From positions 62,001-126,000 of the forward strand of contig NZ_JAFIWC010000012.1 of assembly GCF_017163755.1 (NCBI RefSeq): DNA of 64,000 bases. Reading direction: 5' to 3'. Position 1 is the stretch's first letter, and the number at the start of each line of letters is the position of its first letter. The notes under the pieces were generated by a model. It saw nothing but the letters and a program-made list of their open reading frames with translations. It did no database searches and had not been told where the DNA came from. The DNA comes from Xanthomonas sp. Its GTDB lineage: Bacteria > Pseudomonadota > Gammaproteobacteria > Xanthomonadales > Xanthomonadaceae. The translations under genes were made by a program, and so were the position numbers. Below, piece by piece: positions 58,334-63,120 of the stretch.

Positions 58334-58680
58334 GGCGGTTCTTCGGCGCGTGGGGGAACCATGCGCGCGGCGGTGCCGGTGCGCGATGGGGCGCACAGGA
58401 TACCCGCTGGCTTGGGCGCCCGTGCCGGCTTTCCCGTATACAGCGCGCGCCGCCCGGGTCGGCGGCGACCACGATGGATTGGCCGGCGCCCGCGCTGCGT
58501 TCGATCTTCTCCGGCCGCGCGCCCGGCGACCACGCGGCCGCCATCACGCGGCGGATCGCGCGCATCATGCCTCTCGCGCGGGTTCTGAACGCGGTCAGTC
58601 GGTCCATTCGTGCCGGCCGTGCCGTGTCTCATATCCTGAGACGCTTTTCCGCTTCCCTGTCCGCTTTGAGAGCCGTACCG

Positions 58681-61179
58681 ATGCCCGCCCACGCCCTAGC
58701 CCGCCGCACCGAGGACGCCGAACGCGCCCTGTCCACCACTGGCGGCGAGCCTTCGCGCGACGGCGCGCTGCTGACCGAGCGGCTGGAGCGGCGCTACCAC
58801 GACCGCATCACCGGCAGCTTCATGATCCCCGGCCGCGAGGGCCGCTACGCGCCGATCCCGGACGACGTGCCGGCGGCGCTGGTCGCGGCGCTGAAGGCGC
58901 GCGGCATCGAGCAGCTCTACAGCCACCAGGCCGAAGCCTGGGATGCGGCGCAGCGCGGCGAGCACGTGGCCATCGTCACCCCCACCGCGTCGGGCAAGTC
59001 GCTGTGCTACACGCTGCCGGTGGTGGCCGCGGCGATGACCGCGCAGGCAAAGGCGCTGTACCTGTTCCCGACCAAGGCGCTGGCGCAGGACCAGGTGGCC
59101 GAGCTGCTGGAGCTCAACCGCGCCGGCGAACTGGGAGTGAAGGCCTTCACCTTCGACGGCGACACCCCGGGCGATGCGCGTCAGGCGATCCGCCTGCACG
59201 GCGACATCGTGGTCAGCAACCCGGACATGCTGCACCAGGCGATCCTGCCGCACCACACCAAGTGGGCGCAGTTCTTCGAGAACCTGCGCTACGTGGTGAT
59301 CGACGAGATCCATACCTACCGCGGCGTGTTCGGCAGCCACGTCACCAACGTGCTGCGCCGGCTCAAGCGCATCTGCGCGTTCTACGGGGTGAAGCCGCAG
59401 TTCATCCTGTGCTCGGCGACGATCGGCAACCCGCGCGCGCATGCCGAGGCGTTGATCGAGCAGCGCGTGCATGCGATCACCGAATCCGGCGCGCCGTCGG
59501 GCGACAAGCACGTGCTGCTGTGGAACCCGCCGGTGGTCAACGCCGACCTGGGCCTGCGCGCGTCGGCGCGCTCGCAGAGCAACCGCATCGCGCGCATCGC
59601 GATCAAGAGCGGGCTGAAGACCCTGGTGTTCGCGCAGACCCGGCTGATGGTGGAAGTGCTGACCAAGTACCTCAAGGACATCTTCGACCACGACCCGCGC
59701 AAGCCGCCGCGCATCCGCGCCTACCGCGGCGGCTACCTGCCCACCGAGCGCCGCGAGGCCGAGCGCGCGATGCGCGCCGGCAGCATCGACGGCATCGTCT
59801 CCACCTCGGCGCTGGAACTGGGCGTGGACATCGGCTCGCTGGACGTGGTGGTGCTCAACGGCTACCCCGGCAGCGTGGCCGCGACCTGGCAGCGCTTCGG
59901 CCGCGCCGGCCGCCGCCAGCAGCCCTCGCTCGGCGTGCTGGTGGCCAGCTCGCAGCCGCTGGACCAGTACGTGGTGCGGCATCCGGACTTCTTCGCCGAC
60001 GCCTCGCCCGAGCACGCGCGCACCGCGCCGGACCAGCCGCTGATCCTGTTCGACCACATCCGCTGCGCCGCGTTCGAGCTGACCTTCGTCGCCGGCGAGG
60101 CGTTCGGCCCGGTGGACCCGGAGGTGTTCCTGCAGGCGCTGGCCGAAAGCGAGGTGGTGCACCAGGAGGGCGATCGCTGGGAGTGGATCGCCGACAGCTA
60201 CCCGGCCAACGCGGTGAGCCTGCGCTCGGTGGCCGACGGCAACTTCGTGGTGGTCGACAAGACCGATGGCAAGCAGCAGATCATCGCCGAGGTGGACTAT
60301 TCCGCTGCCGCGCTCACCCTGTACGAAGGCGCGATCCACATGGTGCAGAGCACCCCGTACCAGGTGGAGAAGCTGGACTGGGAAGGGCGCAAGGCCTACG
60401 TCACCCGCACCCACGTGGACTACTACACCGACAGCATCGACTTCACCAAGCTCAAGGTGCTGGACCGCTTCGACGGCGGCGCGGCCGGGCGCGGCGACAG
60501 CCACCACGGCGAGGTGCACGTGGTGCGGCGCGTGGCCGGCTACAAGAAGATCCGCTACTACACCCACGAGAACATCGGCTACGGTCCGGTCAACCTGCCC
60601 GACCAGGAGCTGCACACCACCGCGGTGTGGTGGCAGCTGCCGCAGGCCACGCTGCTGAAGGCCTTCGCCTCCAAGCAGGATGCGCTGGACGGCTTCCTCG
60701 GCGCGGCCTACGCGCTGCACGTGGTGGCCACGGTGGCGGTGATGGCCGACGCGCGCGACCTGCAGAAGGCGGTGGGCGACGGCGACGGCGCCTGGTTCGC
60801 GATGGCCGACGCCAAGGGCCGCGGCCAGCTGCGCGGCGGCGACAACGGCGAGCCGGTGGCGGTGGAGCTGCAGCAGTTCGTGCCCACCGTGTACCTGTAC
60901 GACAACTTCCCCGGCGGCGTGGGCCTGAGCGAGCCGCTGTGGCAGCGCCAGGCCGAACTGGTGCAGCGCGCGCGCGAACTGGTGCAGCGCTGCGACTGCG
61001 TGGCCGGCTGCCCGGCCTGCGTCGGCCCGGTGCTGGCCGCGCAGGAGCAGAGCGCGACCACGCCCAAGGCGCTGGCGCTGCACGTGCTGCGCCTGCTGCT
61101 GGACGGCGCGGCGCTGGACGAGGACGCGACGACCGCGATCGACAGCGGGCTGGATGCGCTGCCGGAGTGGAGTGCATGA
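58681..61179 (+). CDS. DEAD/DEAH-box helicase with MZB/DUF1998 domain (MrfA/YprA-like)
   Basis: An 832-residue superfamily-2 helicase. Walker A is TPTASGKSLCY, the Walker B DEIH box is VVIDEIHTYRG, motif III is CSATIGN and motif VI is QRFGRAGRRQQ. The C-terminal MZB domain has the zinc cysteines C771, C773, C777 and C780 (CDCVAGCPACVGP). This architecture is that of MrfA (YprA), which with the exonuclease MrfB removes mitomycin-type DNA adducts in Bacillus subtilis. The YprB-like gene downstream supports the same pairing. The stop overlaps a following mini-ORF (ATGA). Confidence 0.92.
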   Translation: MPAHALARRTEDAERALSTTGGEPSRDGALLTERLERRYHDRITGSFMIPGREGRYAPIPDDVPAALVAALKARGIEQLYSHQAEAWDAAQRGEHVAIVTPTASGKSLCYTLPVVAAAMTAQAKALYLFPTKALAQDQVAELLELNRAGELGVKAFTFDGDTPGDARQAIRLHGDIVVSNPDMLHQAILPHHTKWAQFFENLRYVVIDEIHTYRGVFGSHVTNVLRRLKRICAFYGVKPQFILCSATIGNPRAHAEALIEQRVHAITESGAPSGDKHVLLWNPPVVNADLGLRASARSQSNRIARIAIKSGLKTLVFAQTRLMVEVLTKYLKDIFDHDPRKPPRIRAYRGGYLPTERREAERAMRAGSIDGIVSTSALELGVDIGSLDVVVLNGYPGSVAATWQRFGRAGRRQQPSLGVLVASSQPLDQYVVRHPDFFADASPEHARTAPDQPLILFDHIRCAAFELTFVAGEAFGPVDPEVFLQALAESEVVHQEGDRWEWIADSYPANAVSLRSVADGNFVVVDKTDGKQQIIAEVDYSAAALTLYEGAIHMVQSTPYQVEKLDWEGRKAYVTRTHVDYYTDSIDFTKLKVLDRFDGGAAGRGDSHHGEVHVVRRVAGYKKIRYYTHENIGYGPVNLPDQELHTTAVWWQLPQATLLKAFASKQDALDGFLGAAYALHVVATVAVMADARDLQKAVGDGDGAWFAMADAKGRGQLRGGDNGEPVAVELQQFVPTVYLYDNFPGGVGLSEPLWQRQAELVQRARELVQRCDCVAGCPACVGPVLAAQEQSATTPKALALHVLRLLLDGAALDEDATTAIDSGLDALPEWSA

Positions 61180-61295
61180 GCTTCGGCTTCAAACAACCGT
61201 GGACGTTGCACCGGCTGTCGCAAGGCGTGGTGCTGGATGGCGCGTCGAACGCAGTCGATGTCGATCTCCACACGCTGCCGGAGCGCAGCGCATGA
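61176..61295 (+). CDS. Mini-ORF 1 of the helicase-exonuclease linker
   Basis: A 39-codon frame overlapping the helicase stop (ATGA at 61176) and ending in ATGA at 61292. It starts MSFG, has LDGAS at residues 20-24 and closes TLPERSA. The closing part resembles the helicase's own C terminus, which reads LDGAA and ends ALPEWSA. Related in layout to mini-ORFs 2 and 3. Translation is plausible only by coupling; no ribosome site is seen. Confidence 0.45.
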   Translation: MSFGFKQPWTLHRLSQGVVLDGASNAVDVDLHTLPERSA

Positions 61296-61408
61296 GCGTC
61301 GGCCTCGGATATCCGTGCAGGGTGCGCTTGCTGCCGGAACGATCGGTGCGCGACAACGCATCGAATCGATCCACCGATCCCACCGCGTTGCCGAGGTCGC
61401 GCGTATGA
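61292..61408 (+). CDS. Mini-ORF 2 of the helicase-exonuclease linker
   Basis: A 38-codon frame that overlaps mini-ORF 1 by ATGA (61292-61295) and ends in ATGA at 61405. It begins MSVGL, carries RDNAS at residues 20-24 aligned with LDGAS and LDYAS of its neighbours, and closes ALPRSRV. The unit start-to-start distance is 113 bases. Confidence 0.4.
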   Translation: MSVGLGYPCRVRLLPERSVRDNASNRSTDPTALPRSRV

Positions 61409-61524
61409 GCGGCAGCCTGGAGCGTCGGTGCGCATCGCGTTTTCTGCTGGAACGGGAGGTGCTGGACTACGCATCGACCGCGGTCCATGCCGGTTCCGCA
61501 GCCTTGCCGGTGTCGCGCGCATGA
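61405..61524 (+). CDS. Mini-ORF 3 of the helicase-exonuclease linker
   Basis: A 39-codon frame from 61405 to 61524, overlapping the exonuclease start by ATGA (61521-61524). It begins MSGSLERR, resembling the exonuclease start MSINLERL. It has LDYAS at residues 20-24 and ends ALPVSRA. The unit start-to-start distance is 116 bases. Together the three frames look like repeated copies of the junction between the two large genes. Confidence 0.4.
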   Translation: MSGSLERRCASRFLLEREVLDYASTAVHAGSAALPVSRA

Positions 61525-62636
61525 GCATCAACCTCGAACGCCTGCGCGCGTTGCGCAAGCAGGCCGGCGCTGCGACCGTGGACGCGCCGCGTCCGTCGGC
61601 ACCGGGCGCGCGGCCAAACAGCACTGCCGGCGCCGTAGCTGCCAAAGCGTCGGTACCCGTGCCTGCAAGGGCAGCCGCGCCCGCTGGCCGGCCCGCGCTG
61701 CTGCGCAAGCCACCACGCGTCACCGACGCGGCGCCCATCCCGCCCGCGTCGCGCCCACCGATGCCCGCGCGTACCGGCGACACCGCCGTCGCCGTGGCAC
61801 CGCCGATCGCGATCGAACCGTTCGACCGGCGCGGCGCCGACGTCGCCTCGCTGCGGCGCCTGCTCGGCATGCGCGAACGCGCGGTGGCGCCGGCCGTGGC
61901 GCCGCGCAAGCCGCAGGCAGCCGACCGCCACCTGCCCGGACGCGAGATCGCGCCCGGCCTGCACCTGATCGAAGCGTTCCTGCCGCAGCCGATCCCCACC
62001 GCCGCGCTGTCGCTTGCCTTCGCCAAGCGCCAGGACGCGGTGCATCCGTCGGACGTGCTGTTCTTCGACACCGAGACCACCGGCCTGGCCGGCGGCACCG
62101 GCACCCGCGCGTTCATGATCGGCGCGGCCGACTGGTACCTGCACCCGCTGGAGGGCACCGGCCTGCGCATCCGCCAGCTGATGATGTCGACGATGGGCGC
62201 GGAGAAGGCGATGCTCGAAGCGTTCCGCGAATGGCTGGCGCCGGGCACGGTGCTGTCCAGCTACAACGGCCGCTGCTACGACGCGCCGCTGCTGAAGACC
62301 CGCTACCGGCTGGCGCGCTGCGCCGACCCGCTGTCGGCGCTGGACCACGTGGACCTGCTGCATCCCACCCGCCGCCGCTACCGCGGCACCTGGGAGAACT
62401 GCAAGCTGGCCACCATCGAACGCCAGCTGCTGCGCATCGTGCGCGAGGACGACCTGCCCGGTTCCGAAGCGCCGGCGGCGTGGCTGAGCTACCTGCGCGG
62501 CGGCAGCGCGCGCAACCTGCGCCGCGTGGCCGCGCACAACCACCAGGATGTGGTGACGCTGGCGCTGCTGATGCAGCGGCTGGTGGCGGCCGAAGCGGAG
62601 GATCGCGACGTGGTGCCGTTCGTGGAAGCGCCGTAG
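61521..62636 (+). CDS. RNase H-fold exonuclease (YprB/MrfB-like)
   Basis: A 371-residue protein. The first 120 residues are Ala/Pro/Arg-rich and low-complexity. From about residue 170 the RNase H-like exonuclease core begins: VLFFDTETTGLAGGTGTRAF (ExoI motif with DxE), LSSYNGRCYDAPLL (ExoII), LDHVDLLHPTRRRYRGTWENCKLATIE, and the final HNHQDVVTL motif with the metal Asp. This matches the YprB/MrfB family, partner of the MrfA helicase. Its start overlaps the third mini-ORF by ATGA, and the chain continues back to the helicase. Confidence 0.92.
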   Translation: MSINLERLRALRKQAGAATVDAPRPSAPGARPNSTAGAVAAKASVPVPARAAAPAGRPALLRKPPRVTDAAPIPPASRPPMPARTGDTAVAVAPPIAIEPFDRRGADVASLRRLLGMRERAVAPAVAPRKPQAADRHLPGREIAPGLHLIEAFLPQPIPTAALSLAFAKRQDAVHPSDVLFFDTETTGLAGGTGTRAFMIGAADWYLHPLEGTGLRIRQLMMSTMGAEKAMLEAFREWLAPGTVLSSYNGRCYDAPLLKTRYRLARCADPLSALDHVDLLHPTRRRYRGTWENCKLATIERQLLRIVREDDLPGSEAPAAWLSYLRGGSARNLRRVAAHNHQDVVTLALLMQRLVAAEAEDRDVVPFVEAP

Positions 62637-62701
62637 CGCAGACGTTCTTGCGCTGGCGCCGCCTTGTGGCGCTGCGTGAGTTGGATGCCGAGGCTTCGCC
62701 C

Positions 62702-62804
62702 GTACCCTCATCCGGCCCTGCGGGCCACCTTCTCCCGATGGGAAAGGGAACAGCGCGGCGTCAAAGCCCCTCTCCCACCGGGAGAGGGGTTGGGGTGAGG
62801 GTAC
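62702..62804 (-). repeat. GTACCCTCA palindromic repeat, inverted copy A
   Basis: GTACCCTCA ... TGAGGGTAC with inner GGCCCTGCGGGCC and CCCCTCTCCC-ACC-GGGAGAGGGG, reading opposite to the array at 29496. It lies just beyond the exonuclease stop. Confidence 0.9.
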
Positions 62805-62848
62805 GGCGCGAAAGCGTCTCGCTGGGCTGAGTGCACGAGGCTCCGCCC

Positions 62849-62973
62849 GTACCCTCATCCGGCCCTGCGGGCCACCTTCCCCCAAAAGGGGGCCATGGTC
62901 CCGATGGGAGAAGGAACAGCCGCGGCGTGCCTTAGCCCCTCTCCCACCGGGAGAGGGGTTGGGGTGAGGGCCC
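62849..62973 (-). repeat. GTACCCTCA palindromic repeat, inverted copy B
   Basis: A second copy in the same orientation as copy A, with one outer arm changed to TGAGGGCCC and about 20 extra bases near the middle (CCCAAAAGGGGGCCATGG). Reading frames that cross these copies end SPQPLSRWERG, a false protein tail common near such repeats. Confidence 0.85.
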
Positions 62974-63120
62974 GGCAGCCAGGCGCCCAGCCTTAGCCGA
63001 CATGCCGCCCACAGCTCCCTGCCGAAAACGGTCGAACCAGCGCCAGGCGCGTATCAGCGACGACGCCAGCATCGGCGGCGGCATGCCGGCCGCCTGCCGC
63101 CGCGCGAACGCAGCAGCAGC

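What the first reader, a model, noticed from the sequence alone, without database searches (positions are those of the whole stretch)
61176..61524. Chain of three repeat-derived mini-ORFs linking helicase and exonuclease by four ATGA overlaps
Between the MrfA-like helicase and the MrfB-like exonuclease lie three frames of 39, 38 and 39 codons. Each starts ATGAGC, overlaps its neighbour by four bases, and repeats at intervals of 116, 113 and 116 bases. Residues 21, 23 and 24 (D, A, S) are identical in all three, and each closes with an LP-containing tail like the helicase's own ALPEWSA. Starts resemble the exonuclease start (MSINLERL / MSGSLERR). The simplest reading is tandem duplication of the junction, helicase tail plus exonuclease head, with the stop/start coupling kept in every copy. 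This would turn a two-gene overlap into a five-cistron relay that could tune exonuclease output.
Basis: partly seen in the sequence, partly recalled or inferred. Interest (0 to 1): 0.75.

Follow-up and report, generated by a model that had tools for sequence, protein, structure and literature searches.

The report
Spacer mini-genes relaying ribosomes between genes
Between two DNA-repair genes of a Xanthomonas-type bacterium sit three tiny back-to-back reading frames, descended from duplicated copies of the gene boundary itself, whose protein sequence seems not to matter but whose frame looks preserved so that ribosomes can be handed from the first gene to the second.

Summary
Three frames (39, 38, 39 codons) link an MrfA-like helicase to an MrfB-like exonuclease by four ATGA overlaps. 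Each unit resembles the exonuclease's first 36 nt plus the helicase's last 84 nt. Of 19 genus genomes with the locus (own included), 11 have no unit (direct ATGA overlap); 8 carry one to three units, some fused, all with an unbroken relay. Unit peptides drift neutrally (dN/dS 0.64-1.41) while frame and overlaps persist. Across the family I parsed 136 junctions: 102 direct, 32 with a spacer. In 31 of the 32, reading frames bridge helicase to exonuclease; 27 do so strictly by 4-nt overlaps (6.3 expected by shuffling). In the window's genome 6 of 95 other spaced pairs do, or 6 of 28 whose upstream gene ends in NTGA. One 1.1-kb spacer is not bridged. Best explanation: termination-reinitiation coupling is selected, so inserted or duplicated DNA is mostly kept as translated linker cistrons. 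Closest precedent: mycobacterial MIRUs (senX3-regX3). Differences: origin from the junction itself, and repeated capture of other DNA at one junction. Tuning of exonuclease output is untested; no expression data were available.

The parts
58474..61179 (+). MrfA-like DEAD/H helicase; its last 84 nt are the inferred source of the unit tails
61176..61295 (+). linker mini-ORF 1 (39 aa)
   Evidence: 83% identical to L021 unit 1 and 74% to L014 unit 1
61292..61408 (+). linker mini-ORF 2 (38 aa; one codon shorter)
   Evidence: 89% identical to L021 unit 2
61405..61524 (+). linker mini-ORF 3 (39 aa)
   Evidence: 91% identical to L021 unit 3
61521..62636 (+). MrfB-like RNase-H-fold exonuclease; its first 36 nt are the inferred source of the unit heads
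61164..61167 (+). GGAG, Shine-Dalgarno-like, 8 nt before the mini-ORF 1 start (-6.2 kcal/mol to anti-SD)
61280..61283 (+). GGAG before the mini-ORF 2 start (-5.8)
61393..61396 (+). GAGG before the mini-ORF 3 start (-6.6)
61509..61512 (+). GGTG before the exonuclease start: weak (-3.0)
61086..61092 (+). GCTGCGC in the helicase gene, inferred left breakpoint repeat of the duplication
   Evidence: exact partner 116 nt away seen in L015 and L020
61550..61556 (+). GTTGCGC in the exonuclease gene, inferred partner of the breakpoint repeat (one base different in the window)

Best explanation
The helicase and exonuclease are coupled by termination-reinitiation at a 4-nt ATGA overlap: a ribosome ending the helicase restarts at once on the overlapping start. 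In an ancestor of one clade of the genus, slippage or recombination between two short GCTGCGC repeats duplicated about 116 nt across this junction, making a mini-cistron of exonuclease head plus helicase tail that carries its own start, Shine-Dalgarno-like motif and ATGA exit. Later copies gave up to three. Because reinitiation fails across long untranslated gaps, DNA between the genes tends to be kept only while it forms an unbroken chain of reading frames into the exonuclease start. The peptides are by-products; the translated path is what is conserved. Elsewhere in the family the same rule keeps other inserts, some with REP-like repeats, as linker cistrons. Shown: anatomy, homology, copy-number variation, near-neutral peptide drift, kept frames and overlaps, excess over null and control. 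Inferred: that ribosomes really use the relay, and that coupling is what is selected.
For: Genus: 11 of 19 loci direct, 8 with units; the 8 lie with 3 zero-unit species in one clade (99/99). Unit = exonuclease head + helicase tail; 7-nt repeat at 116 nt in L015 and L020. Strict chains intact in 8 of 8 unit-bearing genomes although nine unit comparisons show pN 0.17-0.33 and dN/dS 0.64-1.41 (same species pairs: helicase pN 0.01-0.04, exonuclease pN 0.04-0.08); simulated substitution at 17% leaves the strict chain of six two- or three-unit arrays in 13-39% of runs. Frame changes in L021 and L022 fused neighbouring units but still exit at the exonuclease ATGA. SD energy -5.6 or better at 23 of 25 starts in these 8 genomes (background median -2.4, best tenth -5.7). 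Family: 136 parsed junctions, 32 with a spacer of 10 nt or more; of the 31 up to 439 nt, 27 have strict relays (6.3 expected), 30 with overlaps of 1-20 nt allowed (9.8 expected); the 31st (L054) enters an N-terminally extended exonuclease frame by 4-nt overlaps. By 16 sequence clusters: 14 strict, 4.05 expected, P=8.5e-8. Own-genome control: 6 of 95 other spaced pairs, Fisher 1.2e-17, by clusters 2e-11; among control pairs whose upstream gene ends in ATGA, GTGA or TTGA, 6 of 28, Fisher 3.4e-7, by clusters 2.8e-5. Literature: a 38-nt gap cut reinitiation by 80-90% in two E. coli pairs and abolished it in a third; [quoted passage not shown]
Against: No expression or ribosome data. L103 (1129-nt spacer of repeats) has no chain, strict or relaxed, so coupling is not indispensable everywhere; L106 has an 8-nt gap after a TAG stop. 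The fair control (upstream NTGA stop) has relays in 6 of 28 strict and 13 of 28 relaxed, far more than the plain 6 of 95, though it allowed about 8 start codons per pair. At another ATGA pair, scpB-rluB, 3 of 3 spacers have no relay. The window's exonuclease start has a weak SD (-3.0), L021's weaker still (-1.7), and outside the genus SD motifs are uneven (for instance exonuclease starts of L060 +0.6 and L092 +1.3). A review cites a study with coupling over +50 to +350 nt in E. coli (PMC12548453), which would relax the need for a translated path. With relaxed overlaps, 22-56% of the six simulated arrays stay bridged. Spacers in related species are not independent. Gene calls in the control were crude. 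Three spacers (L101, L123, L138) had their exonuclease start set from the chain, which is partly circular.
Confidence: 0.8

Rival explanations
1. The mini-ORFs encode small functional proteins, and the spacing is incidental.
For: All are open frames with start and SD-like motifs, and position orthologues exist across species.
Against: dN/dS 0.64-1.41 in nine unit comparisons; no Pfam or NCBIfam hit; copy number 0-3; frame changes fuse units; other genera hold other sequences of 5-148 codons.
Confidence: 0.05
2. The spacer carries an internal promoter or RNA element driving the exonuclease separately, as reported for the MIRU-bearing senX3-regX3 interval; open frames are a by-product of duplicating coding DNA.
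For: PMC4213456 passages report promoter activity in the MIRU interval.
Against: No sigma-70-like promoter or terminator found at 60900-61800; one sub-threshold Rfam match only, on the other strand; it would not explain kept frames in other spacers. Consensus promoter scans are weak evidence.
Confidence: 0.08
3. Selectively neutral: tandem duplication of coding sequence in a high-GC genome stays open by chance, and overlaps are inherited.
For: Units start as coding DNA, so an intact first copy is automatic when its length is 2 mod 3; with relaxed overlaps many simulated arrays stay bridged; 6 of 28 NTGA-ended control pairs are relays.
Against: 8 of 8 arrays keep strict chains, where simulation keeps 13-39% for the six two- or three-unit arrays (59% and 82% for the two single-ORF ones); in other genera inserts not made from the junction are relays too: 14 of 16 clusters strict against 4 expected.
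Confidence: 0.1

Closest known systems
MIRU (mycobacterial interspersed repetitive units), senX3-regX3 interval
   Same: Short repeats between two operon genes, with an ORF coupled at -4 nt spacing; three 77-bp copies in H37Rv, two of 77 and one of 53 bp in CDC1551 (PMC12548453 section 11; PMC4213456 passages).
   Different: MIRUs are described as mobile and interspersed; these units come from the very junction they occupy, and no other copy was found in the window's genome. Sequences were not compared.
4-nt overlapping gene pairs with termination-reinitiation (Huber et al. 2023)
   Same: Short overlap, strong distance dependence, short native flanks suffice (PMC10666635: abstract and two sections; the 2019 paper PMC6728339 seen only in search listings).
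   Different: Two-gene coupling; no chains of linker cistrons in the parts I read.
Ribosome-delivering short upstream ORFs (uORFs)
   Same: Short ORF whose proposed role is to bring a ribosome to the next start (PMC12548453 section 11).
   Different: Here the short ORFs lie inside an operon after a full gene, in series.
Bacillus subtilis mrfAB DNA-repair pair
   Same: Helicase with MrfA Zn-binding domain beside an RNase-H-fold exonuclease (PMC11194089 passages).
   Different: Function not tested here; the passages seen say nothing of translational coupling.

Membership tests
MIRU | Mini-ORF joined to the neighbouring gene at -4 nt spacing | tested here: met
MIRU | Dispersed copies in the genome | tested here: not met
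   one match only in the own genome for the 461-nt query at E <= 0.001
MIRU | Sequence homology to mycobacterial MIRUs | not tested
   no MIRU sequence was fetched
Termination-reinitiation coupled pair | Stop/start overlap of 1-4 nt | tested here: met
   four ATGA overlaps; 102 of 136 junctions direct, nearly all by 4-nt overlap
Termination-reinitiation coupled pair | Downstream translation depends on upstream translation | not testable with these tools
   needs reporter or ribosome profiling
MrfA (helicase) | DEAD and Helicase_C domains with the MZB Zn-binding domain | tested here: met
   (PF00270, PF00271, PF09369 above cut-off)
MrfB (DEDDh exonuclease) | RNase-H-like exonuclease domain | tested here: met
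   PF13482 4.3e-41
MrfB (DEDDh exonuclease) | Catalytic DEDDh residues | not tested
   residues not mapped
MrfB (DEDDh exonuclease) | C-terminal TPR domain | tested here: inconclusive
   no TPR model among the hits at E <= 0.001; no structure predicted

The most novel reading that the evidence does not exclude
At the mrfA-mrfB junction of the Lysobacteraceae, natural selection preserves translatability and not sequence: almost any DNA that enters (self-duplications, REP-like elements, other pieces) is retained in the form of linker cistrons that keep a ribosome relay unbroken. This would define a class of sequence-free, frame-only genes, and their number (0-3) could set the MrfB:MrfA ratio.
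Probability: 0.6. Interest if true: 0.75.

Novelty: new variant of a known kind. Interest (0 to 1): 0.6.

Why it matters
It offers a natural comparative experiment on translational coupling: one gene pair, many spacers, one rule. If true it shows that coupling is important enough to constrain otherwise non-functional DNA at the level of reading frame alone, gives a route by which mini-ORFs arise and persist without coding for anything, and warns annotators that conserved small ORFs need not be proteins. It also makes the disputed question of how far a post-termination ribosome can travel testable with natural variants.

Tried and rejected
Query slip: searches used a stretch (60282-61178) that is out of frame with the helicase; the other frame is open in this G+C-rich DNA, so the right loci were still found, and they were re-identified with in-frame proteins. 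Automatic classing (96 direct, 29 relay, 10 other, of 135) was corrected by reading the sequence: L152, L156 (8-nt overlap), L050, L051 (10-nt overlap) and L087 (frame confusion) are direct; L065 is a relay (Ns in the exonuclease upset the frame test); L057, L088 and L089 relay by longer helicase-side overlaps. L087 and L152 were therefore taken out of the spacer set before the count. One locus counted as direct, L149, has CTGA at the overlap, so its start is probably the ATG 2 nt beyond the stop. L045 and L091 had no helicase match and L115 was parsed wrongly, so they are not counted as junctions of any class. One family genome (G034) had been overlooked; fetched at the end, it is direct.

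Generality at other ATGA pairs (98, 97 and 99 of 99 genomes matched; the 30 best loci of each were analysed, where 'direct' means a start from 25 nt before to 8 nt after the stop): lptF-lptG 29 of 30 direct, 1 spacer (13 nt) with a strict 6-codon relay; scpB-rluB 27 of 30 direct, 3 spacers (9, 10, 80 nt) with no relay, so relays are not universal; tatB-tatC failed: 14 direct, and its 16 'spacers' seem artefacts, the low-complexity TatB query hitting TatA, and are not used. The names of these three pairs are my reading of the proteins, not from a call. Promoter, terminator and Rfam scans gave nothing usable. Paper searches for linker-cistron relays (and 21, where 20 of 101 papers were listed) showed no title or abstract start on such chains; the MIRU precedent came from a review.

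Full report
What is there. The window holds an MrfA-like helicase (58474-61179) and an MrfB-like exonuclease (61521-62636) on the + strand, with three mini-ORFs of 39, 38 and 39 codons between them, all joined by ATGA.

Origin. The locus was found in 19 of 20 genus genomes, own included. Eleven have the direct overlap, the helicase ending ...LPEWSA and the exonuclease starting MSISLERLRALR or similar. Eight carry spacers: three units in L013 (own), L014 and L017; two in L016 and L023; one in L018; L021 has three of which the last two are fused in one frame; L022 has one 97-codon ORF made of a first unit in a shifted frame, extra DNA and a second unit. Scored separately, unit heads resemble the exonuclease head (53-75% identity) and unit tails the helicase tail (60-75%); of the 17 ORFs, 15 heads and 16 tails reach p<=0.005 by codon shuffling, the exceptions being the heads of L016 u1 (0.073) and L023 u2 (0.047) and the tail of L022 (0.061).

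Of the six zero-unit genus members examined (of eleven), L015 and L020 have the 7-mer GCTGCGC on both sides of the junction exactly 116 nt apart; L019 shows CTGCGC at 119 nt, L024 and L027 have similar repeats at 143 and 134 nt, and L031 shows none. One tandem duplication through short homology would explain the unit. Units at the same position match best between species (L013/L021 83, 89, 91%; L016/L023 80, 77%), so the arrays are older than these species. The zero-unit species inside the clade (L015, L019, L020) may then be losses or replacements by recombination; the tree, with 7 of 16 inner forks open, leaves this unsettled.

What is conserved. In nine unit comparisons dN/dS is 0.64-1.41; for the same species pairs pN is 0.01-0.04 in the helicase and 0.04-0.08 in the exonuclease. 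Two of the nine (L014 u2/L013 u2, L017 u3/L016 u2) are doubtful as orthologues. All 8 arrays keep an unbroken strict chain from helicase stop to exonuclease start. Distances between starts are 116, 113, 107, 98, 227 and 290, all 2 modulo 3, as the overlap requires. Randomly substituting 17% of sites leaves the strict chain in 13-39% of runs for the six two- and three-unit arrays and in 59% and 82% for the two single-ORF ones; with overlaps of 1-20 nt allowed, 22-56% for those six (substitutions only, no indels). Anti-SD energy is -5.6 or better at 23 of 25 starts, against a background median of -2.4 and best tenth of -5.7; the LPE of the tail is encoded CCGGAG, the SD-like motif itself. The two exceptions are the exonuclease starts of the window and of L021. 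Outside the genus SD motifs are uneven.

Family survey. A search with the exonuclease core matched 130 of 198 family genomes. I examined 127 of them, 8 already held as genus members; G108, G134 and G155 were left out because the match lies at a contig edge or is split. With the 19 genus loci this gave 138 loci, of which 136 gave both genes. By with the corrections: 102 direct overlaps, 31 spacers of 10-439 nt, L103 with 1129 nt, L106 with an 8-nt gap, and L115 unusable. The exonuclease start was taken from its conserved N-terminal motif in 28 of the 31 and from the chain in three (L101, L123, L138), where the test is partly circular.

Strict chains (4-nt overlaps only) join 27 of 31 spacers against 6.3 expected from dinucleotide shuffles with random phase; with overlaps of 1-20 nt, 30 of 31 against 9.8. 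L054, the last, enters the exonuclease frame through a GTGA start that extends its N-terminus. Grouping by sequence similarity leaves 16 clusters, one holding the 8 genus arrays and one 9 spacers that share short repeats: 14 strict against 4.05 expected, P=8.5e-8; 15 relaxed against 5.5, P=1e-6. Of the sequences read, several contain palindromic repeats (REP-like is my label), with stops in other frames. L103 is a real exception: no chain.

Control. In 464 kb of the window's own genome, crude gene calls gave 96 same-strand pairs with a 10-450-nt spacer; 7 had strict chains and 15 relaxed ones, this locus among both, although any in-frame start was allowed. 27 of 31 against 6 of 95 gives Fisher P=1.2e-17, 14 of 16 clusters 2e-11; relaxed 3.4e-17 and 7.9e-10. 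Many control genes end in CTGA, which cannot start a chain. Among the 28 control pairs ending in ATGA, GTGA or TTGA, 6 were strict and 13 relaxed, with about 8 candidate starts each: Fisher 3.4e-7, by clusters 2.8e-5. Two other ATGA pairs, 30 relatives each, were nearly always direct; of their 4 spacers 1 was a relay. Spacers seem frequent at mrfAB (32 of 136), and whether the relay rule is general is open.

Mechanism. In E. [quoted passage not shown] A review reports most efficient coupling at -4 to +3 nt, but also a study with coupling over +50 to +350 nt (PMC12548453). Most spacers here exceed the short range, so a translated path is the simplest way to keep coupling. MrfA and MrfB may work as a complex (speculation in PMC11194089, passages), a class of proteins in which overlaps are enriched (PMC10666635 abstract).

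Comparison. MIRUs in mycobacteria are the nearest precedent: repeats with an ORF coupled at -4 nt, three 77-bp copies between senX3 and regX3 in H37Rv. The present units work like them but are not dispersed and come from the junction itself. I file this as a new variant of a known kind.

Noticed in passing
window 62640-63000: Repeat-like DNA after the exonuclease, translating to PSPTGRG / PHPNPSPGGRG / REKVARRAG-type strings; similar strings occur inside the relay spacer of L138.
   Followed up: no
L054, L057, L060, L062, L065, L068, L071, L073, L089: Nine mrfAB spacers share short repeats, REP-like palindromes where read; a bridging frame runs through each.
   Followed up: partly
L103: 1129-nt spacer packed with ATGCCCGCG..GGCGGGCATCCA-type repeats between helicase and exonuclease, with no relay: natural negative case.
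   Followed up: partly
L040-L044, L046, L047 (exonuclease ORF): In genus g17 the exonuclease ORF is 500-610 aa, longer than the 371 aa of the window's.
   Followed up: no
L231: Pair read as lptF-lptG with a 13-nt spacer bridged by a 6-codon ORF with 4-nt overlaps, a possible second case of the rule.
   Followed up: no
G013 (genus member): The one genus genome of 20 without the locus is small (3.5 Mb).
   Followed up: no
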